Origin: Candidatus Methanohalarchaeum thermophilum
Lineage (GTDB): Archaea; Halobacteriota; Methanonatronarchaeia; Methanonatronarchaeales; Methanonatronarchaeaceae
Reading direction: 5' to 3'
DNA: 64,000 nucleotides
Assembly (NCBI GenBank): GCA_001914405.1
Contig: MSDW01000001.1
Coordinates: forward strand, 868,001 to 932,000
Each line of letters begins with the position of its first letter. Position 1 is the first letter of the stretch. A program made the position numbers and the translations under genes. This document shows, one piece after another, positions 31,246-58,230 of this stretch. Under the pieces are notes generated by a model. The model had not been told where the DNA came from. It worked only from the letters and a program-made list of their open reading frames with translations, and did not search any database.

Positions 31246-31389
31246 CTAGGTCTAAAAAATTTATTTTATACTTAATATTTTCTAATTAACTCCAATCTGT
31301 TTTATTTTAGTGGTTAAAAAGACTTTTTCCTTGGGATTCTGTTTTAGAGAAGTATAAATTAATCCTAGTTCTTAAATGATGTTAAGATT

Positions 31390-31857
31390 TATCTTTTGGC
31401 TGAGAAGGCACCTTCCTAAATCTTTTGATTTAGGTGGGTGATGAATCAACTACAGATATTTTAAGTGTTTCTAAGACAAATGATGGGGCTGGCAGTTGGT
31501 TGGTTTGTCTGCCTTTTGAACAAAAAGCAATCCCATTGTCTTTGAGGCAATGGTTAAAGCCTCAGACTCTACATCGAGAGGTGTATAGGTAAGTATTGGG
31601 GTGGATAGGTAAAGCCCGAAACAGCTTGGGAGTAGGGAGTCTAGTGGTTGGTGTGGAGCAGCCTTTGAGGAATAAGGGGGCTATTGTGTAGCTAATATAT
31701 GGACTTTTGTTTTGGCCCTAATCCAATTCTTCCTTAAAGTTAAGTTCCATGTTGACTAGGTGTATGAGAGAAGCCTGATGCTCGGCAAACTCCATTTGGA
31801 TAAGGTCTACATGGAAGCCCCTTCTAAAATCTCTGAGTTAGGTAGGGGTCACTTCAC
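31390..31857 (+). repeat. PATE-like non-coding element, type A
   Basis: It begins TTTATCTTTTGGCTGAGAAGG. The left hairpin is AAGGCACCTTCCTAAATC...GATTTAGGTGGG. The core has GGCAGTTGGTTGGTTTGTC, AAGCCCGAAACAGCTTGGG, GGTTGGTGTGGAGCAGCC, GAGGAATAAGGG, CTAATATATGG and CCCTAATCCAATTCTTC. The right hairpin ends GGGGTCACTTCAC. The right end runs into the 3' end of msrA and supplies its last codons and stop. Confidence 0.7.
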
Positions 31858-32380
31858 TCCATTTTTCTTTTAGGAATTGATCTCTTCCAGATTTACACCT
31901 GTATTTTTTGTATTTTTTTGGATTTTTTTCATGGAAATTTTGATGTCTTTCTTCTGCTTCGTAAAATTCATCGAAAGGTAAGATCTCTGTGGATATTTCT
32001 TTGCAAAACTTATCTAAACTCTCAATTTTTTTCTTTGATTCTGTTGCAAGTTCTTTTTGTCTTTTTGAGTGGTAAAATATAGCAGTTTTATATTGATCTC
32101 CTCTGTCGGCAAATTGGCCAGATTCATCAGTTGGATCGATTTGGCGCCAATAAACATTTAAAAGCTTATTGTAATCTACTATTTTAGGATCATATTGAAT
32201 CTGCACAGCTTCTCTATGGCCTGTATTTTTCTTGCAAACTTTGTTATAAGTTGGATTTTTAGTTTTTCCTCCTGTATAACCTGAGGTAACTTTTTTAACT
32301 CCATCCAGTTTTTTGAACGGAGCTTCCATACACCAAAAGCATCCTCCAGCAAAAGTTGCTTTTTTTAATTTATCGGACAT
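31838..32380 (-). CDS. msrA: Peptide methionine sulfoxide reductase A
   Basis: This protein of about 180 residues has the catalytic motif GGCFWCMEAPF and the MsrA landmarks SGYTGGKTKNPTYNKV, GHREAVQIQYD and QYKTAIFYHS. It repairs oxidised methionine using thioredoxin-type reductants. I start at the ATG at 32380 (MSDKLKKATF) because the family begins there; an upstream ATG at 32413 adds eleven residues. The last codons (about SEVTPT) and the stop lie inside the right end of a repeat element, so the natural C-terminus may have been replaced. A TATA-like CATATATAG precedes it. Confidence 0.92.
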   Translation of the reverse strand: MSDKLKKATFAGGCFWCMEAPFKKLDGVKKVTSGYTGGKTKNPTYNKVCKKNTGHREAVQIQYDPKIVDYNKLLNVYWRQIDPTDESGQFADRGDQYKTAIFYHSKRQKELATESKKKIESLDKFCKEISTEILPFDEFYEAEERHQNFHEKNPKKYKKYRCKSGRDQFLKEKWSEVTPT

Positions 32381-32416
32381 ATGAAACACTCTATATATGA
32401 TCTTTATGAACAAATT

Positions 32417-32727
32417 TTTTTATTTTAGTAGTTGAGAAGATCCTTTTCTAATCACTAATTAAGTGGGGGTGAATTAACCTAAAGATCTTTTTGGTTTTGT
32501 GACAAACTTTTGTAGTGTAGGTAGGGGTGCGGCTGAAGCTAAAGCCCGTGGACTGATTGAGGGCTCTGTATATTAAGATTGCTGGCTGAATTGAAGAAAG
32601 TTCCTGAATAAAGTTTCTTGGATAAGCTCGGCCCCGGATTGAGATGATTTGACGGTGGTAGGAGGTAGGCTCCTTTGACTCTGGAGGTCCTTTTTCTAAT
32701 TTTTGTGTGGTTAGAGGAGGAAGTCAC
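32417..32727 (+). repeat. PATE-like element, degenerate
   Basis: The 5' flank TTTTATTTTAGTAGTTGAGAAG and a left hairpin are intact. The core differs from type A (GGGGTGCGGCTGAAGC, GAGGGCTCTG, GACGGTGGTAGG) and may be a decayed tnpB 3' end. The right side ends GGTTAGAGGAGGAAGTCAC. It is followed almost at once by a second element. Confidence 0.5.
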
Positions 32728-32744
32728 AGAGTTGAAATCAGGAA

Positions 32745-33206
32745 GTTTGTTTTTTTTTAGGGTGGAGGATGAATGCTGAAAACCTAAAAGAATTAGGTAT
32801 TAGGAAAAAGGAATTAGTTCTTAGCTTGTAGTTGGTTTGCTTTTTCTGCTTTTGGACTAAAGGAATTCCAGTTTTTGCTTACATGGAGGATTCAGATTCC
32901 TGTGGATTAGGCTTGGAGACGAATCAAATATAGAAATTTAAGTGGATAAATTGGTAAGCCAGGAAAGCCATTTTTCTTTGGTTAGATATGGTCTTAATGG
33001 CTGGTGTAAGAGCAACCGCTGAGGAATAATCGGAAGCATTTAAGAGGTAGTATATGGCGTAGTTACCTAATCAAAACTTCTTCAGAGCAATAGTTTCTCT
33101 TGTTGGTTGGAGTTATGGGAAAAGTCCAATGGAGATCCAAGATCCTTTTCTTTGGGATAAGGGGCCGCATGGAAGCTTAATCTCTTCTAGGAGTGAGTCA
33201 ATTCAC
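32745..33206 (+). repeat. PATE-like non-coding element, type A, left hairpin damaged
   Basis: Only the right arm of the left hairpin remains (GGTGGAGGATGAATG). The core landmarks are TTGTAGTTGGTTTGC, GGCTGGTGTAAGAGCAACC, GCTGAGGAATAAT, GTAGTATATGG and CCTAATCAAAACTTCTTC. The right hairpin is CTTAATCTCTTCTAG...GAGTGAGTCAATTCAC. Its last bases contain, in reverse, the stop codon of the small gene at 33203-33349. Confidence 0.6.
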
Positions 33207-33349
33207 TTTTGTTTAATTTCTTCAATATCTGTTTCATCTTTTGTTATGTCTTCAATTATTTCTACTACTGTTATTAACACAGAGATTATGGCTCCAATGG
33301 TTATTAATATCTTTTTTATGTTTTTTAGTTTTTTTCTGAGTTCCTTCAT
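33203..33349 (-). CDS. Small membrane protein downstream of thrS
   Basis: This 48-residue frame starts two bases after the thrS stop (TAA-AA-ATG). It encodes a basic N-terminus (MKELRKKLKNIKK), one hydrophobic helix (ILITIGAIISVLITVV) and an acidic tail (EIIEDITKDETDIEEIKQK). The tight coupling and the clean helix argue for a real gene. Its TGA comes from the terminal TTCAC of the adjacent repeat, so the original protein may have been longer. No family was recognised. Confidence 0.5.
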   Translation of the reverse strand: MKELRKKLKNIKKILITIGAIISVLITVVEIIEDITKDETDIEEIKQK

Positions 33350-33351
33350 TT

Positions 33352-35211
33352 TTATCCAACGAATTTGGGTCTTTTTGATAACATGTCTGGAAGTGGCAGT
33401 TTTCTATTTGGTTTTCCCTCTAATTTCTCCTTAATTAGTTCTACTATTTCTTCTACTTCAAATTTTTCTTCTTTTTCTTGTTCCCTTATTCTAAGATTGA
33501 TGAAATCTTCTTTTTCTTCATCGTCGCCAATTACTCCAATGTAGGGGATCCATTCCTTCTCTGCTTCTCTTATTTTTTTTCCTAGTCTCTCATTTCTATC
33601 ATCTATATCAACTCTAATGCCTTCTTCTTTTAGCTTTTCTTTGATTTTATTAGCGTACTCTAGGTTATCTTCTGAGATAGTTAATAGCCTAATTTGTGTT
33701 GGACAAAGCCATATTGGTATTTTAGGTTTTTCCATTTTGTGTGCTTCTTCGAGGATACTATACATCCATCTCTCGATTGAACCAATTGAGGAGTGGCAGA
33801 TTGTACATCCTTCTTCGTTTCCTTCTTTTGTGGTATAGGTTATGTCGTATCTTTCTGCATCTTCTATATCTAGTTGAACGGTGGCAAGTTGTGTGTTATT
33901 TTTTGTTGAATCTATGCCCTGAAATTCATGTTTAACTACCCAGTAATGTTTTCTTTCAGATAATACTTCTACAAATGCAGGTTTGTCTGAGTACTTTAGC
34001 ATTTCGAAAATTTTGTCCTTATTTTCTTCATAGAATTCTTCAACTACTCTAAATACTACTGCATATTCGATATTTGTTCCTTTTGCTAGGTCATCATATT
34101 CTTTAAATAGTTTTTGATATTCTTTCCATCCTTGGGAAAGGTTCGTTGTGAAAGAATGTATGTCGGGCATATGGAAGGTTCTTAATCTCTTTAGTCCGCT
34201 TAATTCTCCTCTTTTTTCGTACCTAAAGCTTTTTGAGAACTCGTATATCCTTAATGGTAAATTCCTATAGCTAAGTATAGCTTCTTTTAGCATCCTAAAT
34301 AAACCGAAGTCCCCGGCAAATCTCAAAACTAGTTCATCATCTTTTTCTGGGGGGAAGACTCTGTAATGTCTTTCGTGAAAGCTTTCTCCTTGTTCTTGGA
34401 TATCAGGTTGACTCCAGTCGTAGAGTATAGGTGTATCTATTTCAACTGCATCTAGTCTATCTACTGCTATTTCGTCTGACCAATCTTCGAGTAAATTGAA
34501 AATTAATTTACCCTTAGGGTAAAGCCGAAGGTTACCAGGATCACTAGCTTCTTCGTAATCCGCAATCTCCAGATGTCTCATTGAGTCAACTGAAGGAGGT
34601 TTTTCAGACGACTTTTTTTCCAGTTCCTCTGAATAAATATAATCTTTGAGTGTTCCAGTAGGTATCTCTTCTTCCTTTACCTGATCCAAGTTGTCTAACT
34701 TTATCTCTCTTTCGTTTGGAGTTAGGATGAAGTATTTGCTTTCGACTTTTCTTTTTTCTTCACCCTTTTCTTCGTCTTCTTCTTCTTCCTCTGGAATTAT
34801 TTTTCTGGATAATTCAGATAAGGGATGACCTTTACATTTTATTTCAAAAGCTTTGTACCATCCAAATGGAGACCTTTTAGTTTTGATCTCATTATCTCTC
34901 AGTTTTTCTTCTATTCTCTTTAGGATCTTAACAGAAACTTCGGGGGATCCAAGGTCCTGTGAGAGATGAGCATAAGGGTACAGGAAAACTCCTTCTGCAT
35001 TTACTTTATTAAGTGTATCTTCAATTTCATTTACACTTTTTTCTACTATTTGGTCGGGATCTTTTTCGTCAATTGATTCTACGGTAATGAAACAAGCTAA
35101 AACCTCTTCCATCTTTCCTTTTTTAAGCTCCTCACTAATCTCTTCTGCAACATTTGTTTTTTCCGTTACCTCGTATTCAAAATGATCTGAATGTATTAAC
35201 AATAGCTTCAT
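33352..35211 (-). CDS. thrS: Threonyl-tRNA synthetase, archaeal type
   Basis: This 619-residue class II synthetase has an N-terminal D-aminoacyl-tRNA-deacylase-like editing domain typical of archaea (starts [20 protein letters not shown], about residues 1-140). The catalytic core has [20 protein letters not shown] (motif 2), [20 protein letters not shown] (motif 3 region) and a C-terminal anticodon-binding domain ([15 protein letters not shown] onward). It edits mischarged Ser-tRNA-Thr. The gene is followed by a coupled small membrane gene. Confidence 0.95.
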
Positions 35212-35335
35212 AATATCAACCTATTTTTACAGAATAATTATATTATTATTAACCAAGTTAAGCGTAAACTAATTTTAGTTGATGTTTATTTACCATAAAT
35301 ATTTTTTAGTAAACAAATAGAATAGGGATACAAAA

Positions 35336-36190
35336 ATGGCTTCAATTATAGTTCACGGTGGAGCAGGAAAAATACAAGAAGAAAAACGAGATTTAGTTCG
35401 AGAAAAAATTAGAAATTCAGTTGAATTAGGTAAAGAAAAATTAAAAAGAGGAAAACCATATAAATCAATTTTAAGCTCTATCAAATATCTTGAAGATTCA
35501 AAAATATTTAATGCGGGTACTGGTAGCGTTTTGACTTCGGATAAAAAAATTCAAATGGATGCTGGGATAGTTGATCAGGATAGAGAACTTGGAGCAGTAA
35601 CCTGCTTAGAAAAAACCAAAAACCCAATCTTGGTAGCAGATGAAGTAAAAAATCGATCCAACCATGTTATTTTATCGGGAAAAGGAGCAAAGATCTTTGC
35701 AAGAAATAGAGGCTACCAGAAGTATGACCCCAAAACAAAAGAGAAAGTTAAGCAATGGGAGAACAAGAAAAAATCTAATTCATCTAATAAATATGGTACT
35801 GTTGGAGCTGTAGTCGTTCAAAGTGATAAAATTGTTTCTGCATCTTCTACAGGAGGAGTTTGGATGAAAAAACAAGGAAGAATTGGAGACACTCCAATAC
35901 TAGGATGTGGAATTTATGCAGATTCTAATCTGGGTGTAGCAGCAACAGGACACGGTGAAGGTATTATAAAGACTATGTTATCAAGAAAAGTAAGAGACTT
36001 TTATGTAGAAAACCGTAACTTAGACCAAGCTCTCGATAAAGATATTAATTTTTTAGAGAAAAAATTAGAAAAACCGGAGGATAAAGCCGGTTTAATAGCA
36101 ATAAACAAGGAACAAGAAATAAGCTTCAAGAAAAACACAGAGGATATGCCTGTAGGATACTTTAGAACTGATGAGAAGGATGTTAAGTGA
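35336..36190 (+). CDS. Isoaspartyl peptidase / L-asparaginase, Ntn-hydrolase type
   Basis: This 284-residue member of the plant-type asparaginase family has SIIVHGGAGKIQ at the N-terminus, FNAGTGSVLTSDKKIQMDA, and the autocleavage site at KYGTVGAVVV, where the Thr becomes the N-terminal nucleophile of the beta subunit. GCGIYADSNLGVAATGHGEG is the substrate region. It hydrolyses isoaspartyl dipeptides or asparagine. The TGA stop overlaps the terminal GTGAC of a repeat lying on the other strand, so the C-terminus may be altered. Confidence 0.9.
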   Translation: MASIIVHGGAGKIQEEKRDLVREKIRNSVELGKEKLKRGKPYKSILSSIKYLEDSKIFNAGTGSVLTSDKKIQMDAGIVDQDRELGAVTCLEKTKNPILVADEVKNRSNHVILSGKGAKIFARNRGYQKYDPKTKEKVKQWENKKKSNSSNKYGTVGAVVVQSDKIVSASSTGGVWMKKQGRIGDTPILGCGIYADSNLGVAATGHGEGIIKTMLSRKVRDFYVENRNLDQALDKDINFLEKKLEKPEDKAGLIAINKEQEISFKKNTEDMPVGYFRTDEKDVK

Positions 36191-36245
36191 CTCCTATCTA
36201 AATCAAGGATTTAAGATGGGCCTTCTCCTTCTAAAAGATAAAAAC
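36187..36245 (-). repeat. Solo hairpin of the PATE-like family
   Basis: On the minus strand it reads TTTTTATCTTTTAGAAGGAG, AGGCCCATCTTAAATCC, TTGATTTAGATAGGAGTCAC: left-end flank, one hairpin, right-end terminus. The terminal GTGAC overlaps the stop of the asparaginase gene and its other end lies near the methylthiotransferase stop, so the hairpin sits between two convergent genes and may also act as a terminator. Confidence 0.55.
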
Positions 36246-36251
36246 TAGGCT

Positions 36252-37502
36252 CTAATTTTTTTCTCCTTCTAAATAAGCAAAATGGATATCAGAGATTTTT
36301 ACCTTAACTTCGTCTCCTATACTCACATTGTCATGAACAACTACAGGGTTGTAGTTTTTATCTCTTCCAATAAATGAATCTTTTTTACCTTCTTTAGTTA
36401 CTAATACATCTAATTCACTACCTAAATACCTTTCTTTGTTTTTTTTACCATATTTTTTCCTTAATTCAGTTAGTTTTTTAGATCTCTCTTTTTTTTCTGC
36501 TGATTTGACTTCCTTGTAGTCATCAGCCTTTGTACCAGGTCTAGGAGAGAACCTTGTTATATTAATTATATCAGGTTTAATTTTATGGATTAGGTCCACA
36601 GTTTTTTTGAAATCTTTGTCCCGCTCTTTTGGAAAACCAGCTATGAAATCCGTTGAAACTGTTCCTCCTATCTCTTTCTTAAACATTTTAACAGTTTCCA
36701 AGAAAAAGTTTCTAGAATAATTTCTGTTCATTAGGTCAAGTACCCTATCTGAACCCGACTGAACAGGTAGATGTAGAAAATTATAAATCTTTTTTTCTTT
36801 GAACATTTCGATAACTTCTTTTCTAATATCTTTTAGATTAAATGGATTCATCATACCTATTCTAATTTTAAAATCTTTATTTAGATCAGTGATCTTATCG
36901 ATTAAGCTAGGTAAATCTGAACCAATATCCCTGCCATATGCAGCAGTATCTTGAGCAGTAATTTGGATCTCTTTTGCTCCCTTTTCCACTAATTCCTCAA
37001 CTTTTTCAACGACATCTTTTTCAGGGAAACTAAATAGATCACCTCTTGCATTTTTGGTTATACAGTATGAACAATTACCTAAACAACCCTCAGAAATTTG
37101 GACTCTCCCAATTACGCCACTAGGAGAACAGGGAATAGACAATTTATTGTCGAATTTAATTTGTTTCTCACAACTTGAACTATTGTTTAAAAAATCTGTT
37201 ATTTTCCTAGGCTCAATCTTGTAAAAATCACTCAAATACTTGTCTAATAACTCTGGTTGAGCAGAAGCCATACATCCAGCAACAACAAGATTTTCACTAA
37301 TCTTCTTTAAATCCCTCAACCTAGATAAAATCCTGTCCTGGGTTTTTTTAATAACTGTACATGTATTTACTACTACTAAATCTGCTTCTTCAGGTGAATT
37401 AGCTATTTCATGGCCTTTTTCTCTAGCTAATCCCTTCATTAAATCAGTATCTGATCTGTTTGCAGTACATCCATAAGTTTCGAAATATACTAACATTTTC
37501 AC
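36252..37502 (-). CDS. tRNA threonylcarbamoyladenosine methylthiotransferase
   Basis: This 416-residue radical-SAM protein has an N-terminal UPF0004 domain (YFETYGCTANRSDTDLM, VVNTCTV, VAGCMASAQPE), the radical-SAM motif GCLGNCSYC (about residues 140-148), then STDFIAGFPKE and TRFSPRPGTKA, and a C-terminal TRAM domain (about 360-410). These match the archaeal/eukaryotic e-MtaB/CDKAL1 group, which makes ms2t6A37 in tRNA. The 'CTANRSD' variant and TRAM end support this over MiaB or RimO. The gene is monocistronic and convergent with the asparaginase. Confidence 0.88.
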   Translation of the reverse strand: MKMLVYFETYGCTANRSDTDLMKGLAREKGHEIANSPEEADLVVVNTCTVIKKTQDRILSRLRDLKKISENLVVAGCMASAQPELLDKYLSDFYKIEPRKITDFLNNSSSCEKQIKFDNKLSIPCSPSGVIGRVQISEGCLGNCSYCITKNARGDLFSFPEKDVVEKVEELVEKGAKEIQITAQDTAAYGRDIGSDLPSLIDKITDLNKDFKIRIGMMNPFNLKDIRKEVIEMFKEKKIYNFLHLPVQSGSDRVLDLMNRNYSRNFFLETVKMFKKEIGGTVSTDFIAGFPKERDKDFKKTVDLIHKIKPDIINITRFSPRPGTKADDYKEVKSAEKKERSKKLTELRKKYGKKNKERYLGSELDVLVTKEGKKDSFIGRDKNYNPVVVHDNVSIGDEVKVKISDIHFAYLEGEKN

Positions 37503-37710: not shown

Positions 37711-38380
37711 TTTTTTTATCTTATTGGTTGAGAAGATCCCATTCTTCAAATCTCTGGCTTTATATAGGATGATGAATCAACCAAAATTGTTAAGTAATTC
37801 AAGCAATTGGTTAAGGTTAATTGGCAGTTGGCTGGCTTTTGTTGCTTTTTTTTTGGATAAAAAATAAATTTTATTATCTTTTGGGCATTTAGCTGAGGCT
37901 TCAGACCCTGGATCGAATAGGTTTTAGAGTTAGGTAGGAAGGCCATTTCTTTGGTTAGTATGGTCTGGTGGCTGTTATAGTTGGAGGCAGAAGACTCGTG
38001 TTCTTCAAGGGGTATGGGATGAATGCCTTTAATAACATTTGAGTGATTTTGGAACTGGGTTAAGCTTTGGCTGTTAGGCGTTTTGCCTTGTCAGATAAAC
38101 GTGGGCCATTTCTTTGTTCATTGGCCTAGGAAATCTCTGGGTAAGCCCGAAACACTTGGAGTAGGGGGTTCTAGTGGTTGGTGTGGAGCAGCCGCTGAGG
38201 AATAAGAGGAACCCTCATTGGGTTGGTATATGGGCTTTGTGCCCTAATCCAGTTCTTCTTTAAAGCGCAAGTTCCCTTGCTGACTGGGTGTATGAGACAA
38301 GCCCAGTAGATAACGTAGGCTCCAACTTGGATAAGGCCTCGCAAGGAAACTCACCCTCTTTAGGGAGTGAGTCACTTCAC
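37711..38380 (+). repeat. PATE-like type A element, composite
   Basis: It begins TTTTTTTATCTTATTGGTTGAGAAG with a left hairpin, then a type A left core (GGCAGTTGGCTGGCTTTTG) to about 38030. A second core copy follows (GCCTTGTCAGATAAACG, AAGCCCGAAACACTTGG, GGTTGGTGTGGAGCAGCC, GAGGAATAAGAGG, CCCTAATCCAG) and the right hairpin ends GTGAGTCACTTCAC. It seems to be two copies joined or nested. The region 37503-37710 between thiotransferase and element holds no gene. Confidence 0.65.
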
Positions 38381-42251: not shown

Positions 42252-43328
42252 ATGAGGGCTGAGAAAACTATCGTTTGTAGGATAACTGAACCGAATAAGG
42301 GTGGATCAGAGGTTCTAAAAAGGGGGGTACAAAATAGGGTTCAGCAGTGTATAAGAGGTGAAGAGGTGGGTATATATTCGGCTACTGCTTAGGCTATTGG
42401 TGGGTATATGGATGGGGGTCATCTAAAAGACAAGGAGTACTCTTGGTACTTGAGGAATGATATATTTTTGGTATAGGAGGTAGAATACAGTAGAGAGTTT
42501 GATTATTGGGCTAAGGATATCTGTGGAAGATGTCTATGGTGGCGTTTTATTTCTAATAGTACCACACGAAGAAATAAAAGAAGAATACAATATCTAGGAT
42601 TTAATTATAGTTAGAAAAGAGTATGGTTTTAAACTCCACTTATCAGTTTCAAAGGAAAGTAGAACCTGTGAAAAACTATAATGATGCCATAAGCATTGAC
42701 ATGGGCCTGAATGAGTTTGCGGCCTGTGTTCAGGTTGCCCGGCCGTCAGACCCCTTGCTATGGCACTCATATAGGTAATATACAAGACAAGTATTTCTTC
42801 TTCCGTAGAAACTGTAAGAATGGCTATGTTAGGAGAAAGTGGGGTAATAAGGACAAGAACAAGATAGAAGACATTTGCCATAAGATAAGTAGGAGAATAG
42901 TTGATAAGGCGAAAGAAAAGAACTTGTTGATTGTATTCGGCGACCTAGAGGATATACAGGAACAGGAAAAGGGGAAAGAAATGAATAGAAAGCTTCATAA
43001 CTTCCCACATTGGAAACTCCGAAATTACATCAAATATAAAGCCAAATGGATAGGGATAGAAGTGGTGAAAGTAGACGAAACATATACACCTCAACGCTGT
43101 TCAAGGTACGGAAAACTCGGATACAGACACAAAAGAAGCTTCAAGTGCGATAATTGTGGATTAGAAACAGACACTGATGAAAATGGAGCTCATAACATAG
43201 CTATTCGAGGTATCGGAAAGTTTGAGAAAATTTCTTCTGATACTGGGGGCATCGTGGCAGTGCCCGAAGCCACTACTGATGAACTGATCTCTGCAATGCA
43301 AGTCAGTGAAGTAGGTGGCAACCTTTGA
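42252..43328 (+). pseudogene. tnpB: Decayed IS1341-type tnpB
   Basis: The N-terminal part (MRAEKTIVCRITEPNKGGSE...) has at least two in-frame stops (about 42396 and 42471) and about three frameshifts. A RuvC-I motif SIDMGLNEFA is still readable near 42695-42725, and the last 180 codons are open, with RuvC-II around VFGDLEDI, a zinc finger and RuvC-III TDTDENGAHNIA. The first zinc pair reads CSRYG instead of CSxCG, so one cysteine is lost. The end (VAVPEATTDELIS...SEVGGNL) recurs in nearby non-coding elements. TnpB is an RNA-guided nuclease; this copy cannot be functional. Confidence 0.8.
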
Positions 43329-56978: not shown

Positions 56979-58230
56979 GTTAACAGAAGAATAAGAAGAA
57001 GTTTTTACTTCTCTTTCTGAGATATGTAGGTTGCTTTATGATTTTTCACTCAAAGAAAGTATAGAGAACTGGAAAGAAAACAAGAACAAATCAAAAGAGG
57101 AAAGAAATTACATTACATATACAGATCAATAAAATAAGTTATTCAAATTAAGAGAAGGATACTCAAAATATAACTGGGTGTATTTAAAAGTCTTACAAAT
57201 GATTTTAAAGAAACTGGACGCCGATTACAAGTCTTTCTTCTCTCTATGGAAGAAAGGAGATAATAAAGCGAAACTACCAGGATTTAAAGGCAGTAAATAC
57301 TTCACGAATTTATGCTATAACCAATCCGGGGTCAAAATAAAAAAAGGGGAAATAAAGTTTTCTTACAACCATCCAGACAAAGCAGAACTATCTTTTGATA
57401 TTTCAACCAAGTTTTATTTAGAAGATAAGAACATTAGACAAATCGAAATTTTCAGAGACGAAGTTAAAGAAGAATACTATATCTCAATATCTTACGAGGT
57501 AGATACTCCAAAATACAAAGATAACGGAAAGTATCAAGCTTTCGATTTAGGAGTTAACAAACACATAGGAGTTAATATGAGTGGGAAGTTCGTTGGGTTC
57601 AAGAACCCAAGACCAGACAAGTATTGGCAATCGAAAATAGAAGAAGTTCAATCAAAAAAAGACAGATGTAAAAAAGGAAGTAATAGATGGAAATGGTATA
57701 ACAAGAAATTGCAACAGGTGAAAAGAAAACTTGCTAATCAAATGAAGGATTGGCAACATAAATTAAGTAAAAAAATAGTTGAGAACACTAAAGCGAATAT
57801 TATAGTAGTTGGAGATTTAGATACTAAAGATATGGCACAGAACAACAAGAATGTAGAGGGCTTGAACAGGAGTTTACAAAACACAGGCACCATAGGTAGA
57901 TTTGTTAGATTTCTAATCTACAAGGCAGAACTTGTAGGTAAGAAGGTAATAGAAATCAACGAAGCAAACACTACCAAAAAGTGCTGTGTCTGTGGAAAGA
58001 AACAGGATATGCCATTACATAAAAGAACTTATAAATGTGATTGTGGAAACGAAATTGACAGAGACAAAAACTCTGCTATCAATATAATGAATCGTTTCCT
58101 ATCACAAGAACGCTCTGTGAACGAGCAATCTTCCTTTATGGAAGATTTTCTGCGACAAACAGGTTTGGAATACGCCAACCAGCAAATGTCCAAACACTCG
58201 CAGGAAACCCCTTCCTCACGAACAACGTGA
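56950..58230 (+). pseudogene. tnpB: tnpB with two in-frame TAA codons
   Basis: Read through in one frame from ATG 56950, it gives about 426 codons of TnpB: MQLTQKIKIELTEE, stop at 56992, EEVFTSLSEICRLLYDFSLK, stop at 57130, then NKLFKLREGYSKYNWVY and the intact rest. Both stops stand where relatives have glutamine, so each is a single CAA-to-TAA change. The later part has RuvC-I FDLGVNKHIG, RuvC-II VVGDLDTKDM (Gly where Glu is common), zinc cysteines CCVCGKKQ...CDCG and RuvC-III DRDKNSAINI. It is probably inactive, though a shortened product could start at TTG or ATG codons after 57132. Confidence 0.75.

What the first reader, a model, noticed from the sequence alone, without database searches (positions are those of the whole stretch)
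31838..36190. Element right ends supply stop codons of neighbouring genes
In convergent orientation the terminal TTCAC/GTGAC provides the TGA of the small gene at 33203 and of the asparaginase gene at 36190, while in msrA the element encodes the last six or so residues and the stop. The SLC13 remnant ends 6 bases from one. Several elements therefore sit at the 3' edge of genes, changing C-termini but sparing the body.
Basis: seen in the sequence. Interest (0 to 1): 0.5.

Follow-up and report, generated by a model that had tools for sequence, protein, structure and literature searches.

The report
Transposon ends replacing gene stop codons
Small jumping-DNA remnants of a known family sit at the ends of some genes in this archaeon; where they land exactly on a stop codon the swap should leave the protein unchanged, and elsewhere they alter only its last few residues.

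Summary
The elements are ends of IS200/IS605-family transposons, abundant in this genome (89 TnpB and 24 Y1-transposase hit rows, some being pieces of one gene). They insert 3' of TTAT/TTTAT, leave no duplication, and 88 of 123 right ends examined finish in TTCAC. Read from the other strand, the retained target is ATAA and the element end GTGA. An insertion on a convergent gene's 'NNA TAA' therefore gives 'NNG TGA': same stop position, usually the same last residue. Removing the element in silico shows this for 4 of 8 single-hairpin cases reconstructed (MsrB, a rhomboid, two small ORFs). The small gene at 33203 has this phase, but its element's left end is decayed. In the other phases or end types the C-terminus changes: asparaginase IKTRL* to VK* (the old tail still lies beyond the element), MsrA NKS* to SEVTPT*, HemB K* to KSTTPP*. 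The SLC13 case was not found. Of 63 single-hairpin copies, 5 lie inside ORFs of 80+ codons (1,369 of 2,530 control sites do) and 4 sit on a stop-codon site (29 of 2,530): avoidance of gene bodies, at most a weak excess at stops. Single-hairpin 'terminal-only' elements are already known from Haloquadratum.

The parts
31388..31392 (+). TTTAT target retained left of the msrA element
   Evidence: target rule from the nested insertion at C1:720009
31393..31857 (+). 465-base non-coding IS200/IS605-type element, right end GGGGTCACTTCAC
   Evidence: copies at 91.7% and 88.9% identity aligned over bases 1-465
31838..32380 (-). msrA (PF01625), last residues and stop TAA encoded by the element
   Evidence: joined flanks give KWNKS*
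32424..32727 (+). separate element of the family ending GGAAGTCAC
   Evidence: BLAST matches to other copies end at about base 304 of the 783-base query; right-end list
32728..33206 (+). decayed element with right end GAGTCAATTCAC; its left end was not identified
   Evidence: bases 572-783 of the query match window 38172-38380 at 68.8%
33203..33349 (-). small gene (48 aa) after thrS; TGA 33203-33205 lies in the terminal TTCAC
   Evidence: similar small ORF after thrS in G001; no Pfam family
33352..35211 (-). thrS with archaeal editing domain
35336..36190 (+). asparaginase (PF01112); last two codons and TGA lie in the element
36182..36237 (-). 56-base single-hairpin (terminal-only) element, right end GTCACTTAAC
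36238..36242 (-). TTTAT target of that element
36238..36255 (+). displaced old asparaginase tail ATA AAA ACT AGG CTC TAA (IKTRL*), overlapping the stop of the convergent gene
   Evidence: joined reading and G001 comparison
36252..37502 (-). convergent radical SAM/UPF0004/TRAM gene; own stop 36252-36254

Best explanation
The features are right ends of IS200/IS605-family elements, mostly non-autonomous, that insert 3' of TTAT/TTTAT without duplication. Reverse-complemented, the retained target is ATAA(A) and the usual right end is GTGA(A); both hold a stop codon in the same phase. Insertion on a convergent gene's NNA TAA therefore swaps it for NNG TGA at the same position, normally with a synonymous last codon. 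In the other two phases, or with TTGAC-type ends, the gene reads a few codons into the element and ends there (VK*, SEVTPT*, or a five-residue STTPP* tail), so the C-terminus changes slightly. Elements remain at gene edges mainly because insertions inside genes are removed by selection. Shown: the boundaries, the target, the readings with the element removed, the depletion inside genes. Inferred: transposition in trans by the Y1 transposases, selection as the cause of the depletion, and the state of each gene before insertion.
For: Family genes are present: 89 PF07282 and 24 PF01797 hit rows. Empty-site test: a 55-58-base element at C1:720009 sits in a tnpB reading frame; with the boundary TTAT| the joined frame reads KNLDVIAMEELQKLN, matching three uninterrupted relatives (KDVDVIAMEELEKIR and similar), whereas TTATC| breaks the frame. 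Targets of 63 single-hairpin copies: 60 TTAT, 3 TTAA. Right ends: 88 of 123 TTCAC. Eight single-hairpin cases read before and after in silico: 4 of 4 with TTCAC in this phase unchanged; HemB K* to KSTTPP*, a kinase-like ORF NK* to NNSTTPP*, CobQ-like LIKNKN* to LLK*, asparaginase IKTRL* to VK*. G001 MsrB ends at the same residue with AAA TAA. G001 has asparaginase and thrS as divergent neighbours and the same CTC TAA TTTT beyond the asparaginase end. Depletion inside genes 5 of 63 against 1,369 of 2,530.
Against: No close relative with true empty sites was available; G001 is another genus, 41-42% identical for asparaginase. MsrB orthologues other than G001 run 4-9 residues longer (4 of 5). Nine HemB orthologues end at about own residues 318-321, between the predicted old end (317) and the present one (322), so they do not decide. 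CobQ and rhomboid orthologues vary in length. Only 1 of 4 single-hairpin copies folds as ssDNA better than shuffles (z -4.22; the others 0.22, -0.30, -0.52). A second nested case (C1:1617348) was ambiguous. The search model scored 150 of 2,095 candidates and missed some right ends in the window (33206, 38380), so the sample is incomplete. The control ORFs were called mechanically.
Confidence: 0.85

Rival explanations
1. The elements actively target stop codons or gene 3' ends, because TTTAT on the opposite strand is ATAAA.
For: Stop-site coincidences among copies outside genes: 4 of 58 against 29 of 1,161 (p=0.067, 80+ codons); p=0.048 with 60+ and with 100+ codons. 3' ends within 100 bases: 23 of 58 against 230 of 1,161. 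Phase: 7 of 11 genes that I judged real are in the stop phase (one-sided p=0.039, chosen after looking).
Against: With all 18 right ends that I examined for phase (17 plus the small gene) it is 9 of 18 (p=0.11), and six further short ORFs stopping 48-58 bases inside elements were left out. 53 of 63 copies are plainly intergenic. The control shows that the target sequence alone places sites on stops.
Confidence: 0.12
2. The elements are domesticated transcription terminators or 3' regulatory hairpins, not passive insertions.
For: Hairpins near gene 3' ends; Borrelia IS605 stem loops are linked to lipoprotein gene ends (PMC2775950, passages).
Against: Neighbour orientation of the copies is close to the control (13 convergent, 13 divergent, 24 tandem at 80+ codons); three of four tested copies do not fold better than shuffles; no expression data.
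Confidence: 0.1
3. The stops and sequence agreement are chance: AT-rich gene ends that happen to meet a repeat.
For: Stop codons are frequent in AT-rich DNA; several of the ORFs are short and lack a Pfam family.
Against: The elements have defined ends shared by copies, and the nested insertion and asparaginase reconstruction restore reading frames.
Confidence: 0.03

Closest known systems
PATEs and 'terminal-only' IS605 elements of Haloquadratum walsbyi (PMC3119063; sections 28 and 30 and passages seen)
   Same: Short non-coding elements with near-terminal palindromes related to IS605-type transposons, no target duplication, 52-base terminal-only forms explained by repeat-mediated core deletion, possibly mobile; IS605-type genes numerous and mostly broken.
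   Different: Here the target is TTAT/TTTAT and the stop-codon consequence is spelled out; the five passages with 'stop codon' in that paper do not concern insertion at gene ends.
IS200/IS605 family with TAM TTTAT/TTTAA in Saccharolobus islandicus (PMC10640517, passages)
   Same: Same target pentamers inferred at the left end (TTTAT for solo tnpB elements, TTTAA for tnpA+tnpB).
   Different: Right-end sequence and gene-end effects were not in the passages seen.
IS608 (PMC5934647, passages)
   Same: Insertion 3' of a short target kept in the left flank; left and right cleavage sites TTAC and TCAA. My inference: on the other strand these read GTAA and TTGA, again a stop codon in one shared phase.
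   Different: Different sequences; 'stop codon' has 0 occurrences in that text.
Borrelia IS605 stem loops at lipoprotein gene ends (PMC2775950, passages)
   Same: IS605 end sequences overlapping the last 8 coding bases and lying just past a TAA stop.
   Different: There the left stem loop lies downstream of the gene and a role as RNA element is suggested.
REP sequences and RAYTs (PMC2817692, passages)
   Same: Single palindromes probably moved in trans by Y1-type transposases.
   Different: Not compared at sequence level here.

Membership tests
IS200/IS605 family | Y1 transposase and TnpB genes in the genome and inside elements with these ends | tested here: met
   TnpB loci with the same right ends TAGGTAGGGGTAGTTCAC
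IS200/IS605 family | insertion 3' of a fixed short target, no target duplication | tested here: met
   nested insertion C1:720009; 60 TTAT and 3 TTAA among 63 copies. A second nested case was ambiguous
IS200/IS605 family | subterminal hairpins | tested here: inconclusive
   palindromes visible in the copies, but only 1 of 4 copies folds significantly as ssDNA
IS200/IS605 family | cleavage sites paired with guide sequences; single-stranded transposition | not testable with these tools
   needs biochemistry
PATE / terminal-only IS605 derivative | short, non-coding, no terminal inverted repeats, fused ends around one palindrome | tested here: met
   63 copies of 50-62 bases; family described in PMC3119063
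PATE / terminal-only IS605 derivative | moves in trans | tested here: inconclusive
   near-identical copies at unrelated sites fit mobility; no strain comparison

The most novel reading that the evidence does not exclude
Left target and right terminus of these IS200/IS605 elements are matched as stop-codon synonyms on the opposite strand (ATAA/GTGA here; GTAA/TTGA in IS608 by inference), so insertion on a convergent stop codon is silent, and this 'stop-for-stop' exchange is a selected feature that opens a safe niche for the elements rather than a by-product of the similarity between the two cleavage sites.
Probability: 0.15. Interest if true: 0.55.

Novelty: new variant of a known kind. Interest (0 to 1): 0.33.

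Why it matters
It gives a simple rule for what an IS200/IS605 insertion does to a convergent gene: which phase keeps the stop, which adds VK*, and which end type adds a five-residue tail. That helps annotation of C-termini and the dating of insertions, and it makes a selection question testable across the many genomes that carry this family. The elements themselves are a known kind.

Tried and rejected
Tried and rejected: (a) TTATC as target (C in the target): breaks the frame at the nested site. (b) My first idea that asparaginase had kept its stop: withdrawn when the right end proved to be GTCACTTAAC, so the tail changed. (c) The msrA element as cause of splitting an MsrA-MsrB fusion: of 27 MsrA loci in relatives (L047-L073) five run in frame into MsrB (L047, L048, L049, L051, L052); most others end as MsrA alone, and removing the element gives KWNKS*, not a fusion. 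The lone msrB lies at C1:1317303-1317638. Undecided. (d) Stop-codon targeting: weak (see rivals). (e) Rfam: no match in the window at gathering scores. (f) Empty sites for C1:539237 and C1:1299562: no convincing left-flank match. (g) Rows dropped: 25 of 150 model hits as left ends, two more, leaving 123; of the 17 right ends, seven (1244453, 1299562, 320289, 357825, 505304, 215205, 80866) were not counted as genes, by my judgement. (h) Literature: eight answered searches (two gave none) showed no report of this stop exchange; the library is open-access only.

Full report
What is there. The window lies at C1:868001-932000 of a 2.14-Mb genome in four contigs. It is archaeal (archaeal threonyl-tRNA synthetase editing domain) and, by my own reading of ORFs that look like mcr genes (not tested with a family search), a methanogen. 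The genome gives 89 hit rows for the TnpB zinc-finger family and 24 for Y1 transposase; some rows are pieces of one gene. Comparison of copies fixes the ends of several IS200/IS605-type elements, most of those shown ending TAGTTCAC, TAGTTGAC or GTCAC.

Target and boundaries. A covariance model of right ends gave 150 scored hits (of 2,095 candidates). After dropping left ends, 123 right ends remained: 88 end TTCAC, 15 TTGAC, 20 otherwise. Sixty-three are single-hairpin copies of 50-62 bases with TTAT (60) or TTAA (3) at their left. One copy (C1:720009) interrupts a tnpB frame; joining its flanks with the boundary after TTAT restores DVIAMEEL as in three uninterrupted relatives, while moving the C into the target breaks the frame. 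A second nested case was ambiguous.

The stop-codon rule. TTAT read on the other strand is ATAA; TTCAC is GTGAA. A convergent gene whose stop TAA lies in the target therefore keeps a stop (TGA) at the same place, and NNA becomes NNG. Removing the element in silico from the eight single-hairpin cases that I reconstructed gives: MsrB, rhomboid and two small ORFs unchanged; HemB K* now KSTTPP* and a kinase-like ORF NK* now NNSTTPP* (both with TTGAC/TTGAG ends, which carry no stop in this phase); CobQ-like LIKNKN* now LLK*; asparaginase IKTRL* now VK*. For MsrB the G001 orthologue ends at the same residue with AAA TAA; four others run 4-9 residues further. HemB, CobQ and rhomboid orthologues do not decide the old end.

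The three window genes. msrA: element 31393-31857 supplies SEVTPT*; joined flanks give NKS*. Small gene 33203: terminal TTCAC supplies the TGA in the silent phase, but the left end of its element is decayed and other elements lie next to it, so the old end is inferred only. Asparaginase: element 36182-36237 supplies VK and TGA through the subterminal GTCAC; the old tail ATA AAA ACT AGG CTC TAA still lies at 36238-36255, overlapping the stop of the convergent gene, and G001 has the same CTC TAA TTTT at the end of its asparaginase. G001 keeps asparaginase and thrS as divergent neighbours. The SLC13 remnant was not found.

Placement. Among the 63 copies, 5 lie inside ORFs of 80+ codons, against 1,369 of 2,530 TTAT sites in the same stretches (p=2e-14); 4 of 63 lie on a stop-codon site, against 29 of 2,530 (among sites outside genes p=0.067; 0.048 with the other two ORF cut-offs). 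Two of those four have TTGAC/TTGAG ends and so do not restore the stop. 3' ends within 100 bases are over-represented (23 of 58 against 230 of 1,161), 5' ends are not. I read this as removal of insertions in genes, with little or no stop targeting. The phase count depends on which ORFs are believed: 7 of 11 (p=0.039) or 9 of 18 (p=0.11).

Known or new. Terminal-only, 52-base IS605 derivatives without target duplication are described for Haloquadratum (PMC3119063, sections 28 and 30 read); TTTAT as target is described for Saccharolobus (PMC10640517, passages); IS605 stem loops overlapping gene ends are described for Borrelia (PMC2775950, passages). The exchange of one stop codon for another through the pairing of target and right end did not appear in eight answered searches of an open-access library. 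By inference from the published cleavage sites TTAC and TCAA (PMC5934647, passages), IS608 should behave alike.

Noticed in passing
G000 genome, e.g. C1:720009, C1:1174326, C1:798276, C2:87209: Near-identical 50-62-base single-hairpin copies occur at unrelated sites (63 in the scored sample), which suggests that the minimal form itself moves.
   Followed up: partly
window 31838-32380 and G000:C1:1317303-1317638: MsrA and MsrB are separate genes here, 417 kb apart, but one reading frame in G001 and in four loci of more distant relatives; msrB is flanked by elements on both sides.
   Followed up: partly
G000:C1:509474 and G000:C2:381239: TTGAC/TTGAG-ended elements add the tail STTPP to a HemB and to a kinase-like ORF.
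   Followed up: partly
L198:1220-1240 and L197:55-75: The same right-end sequence occurs in Archaeon SCG-AAA382B04, the only record matched in genome contigs (own records may be left out); the L198 copy looks like a single-hairpin element.
   Followed up: partly
window 42711-43328 and 57178-58230: Two tnpB-like ORFs in the window, the first shorter, both hit by PF07282.
   Followed up: no
window 32728-32935: Stretch after one element end that recurs after another element's right end at C1:380072, nature unknown.
   Followed up: no
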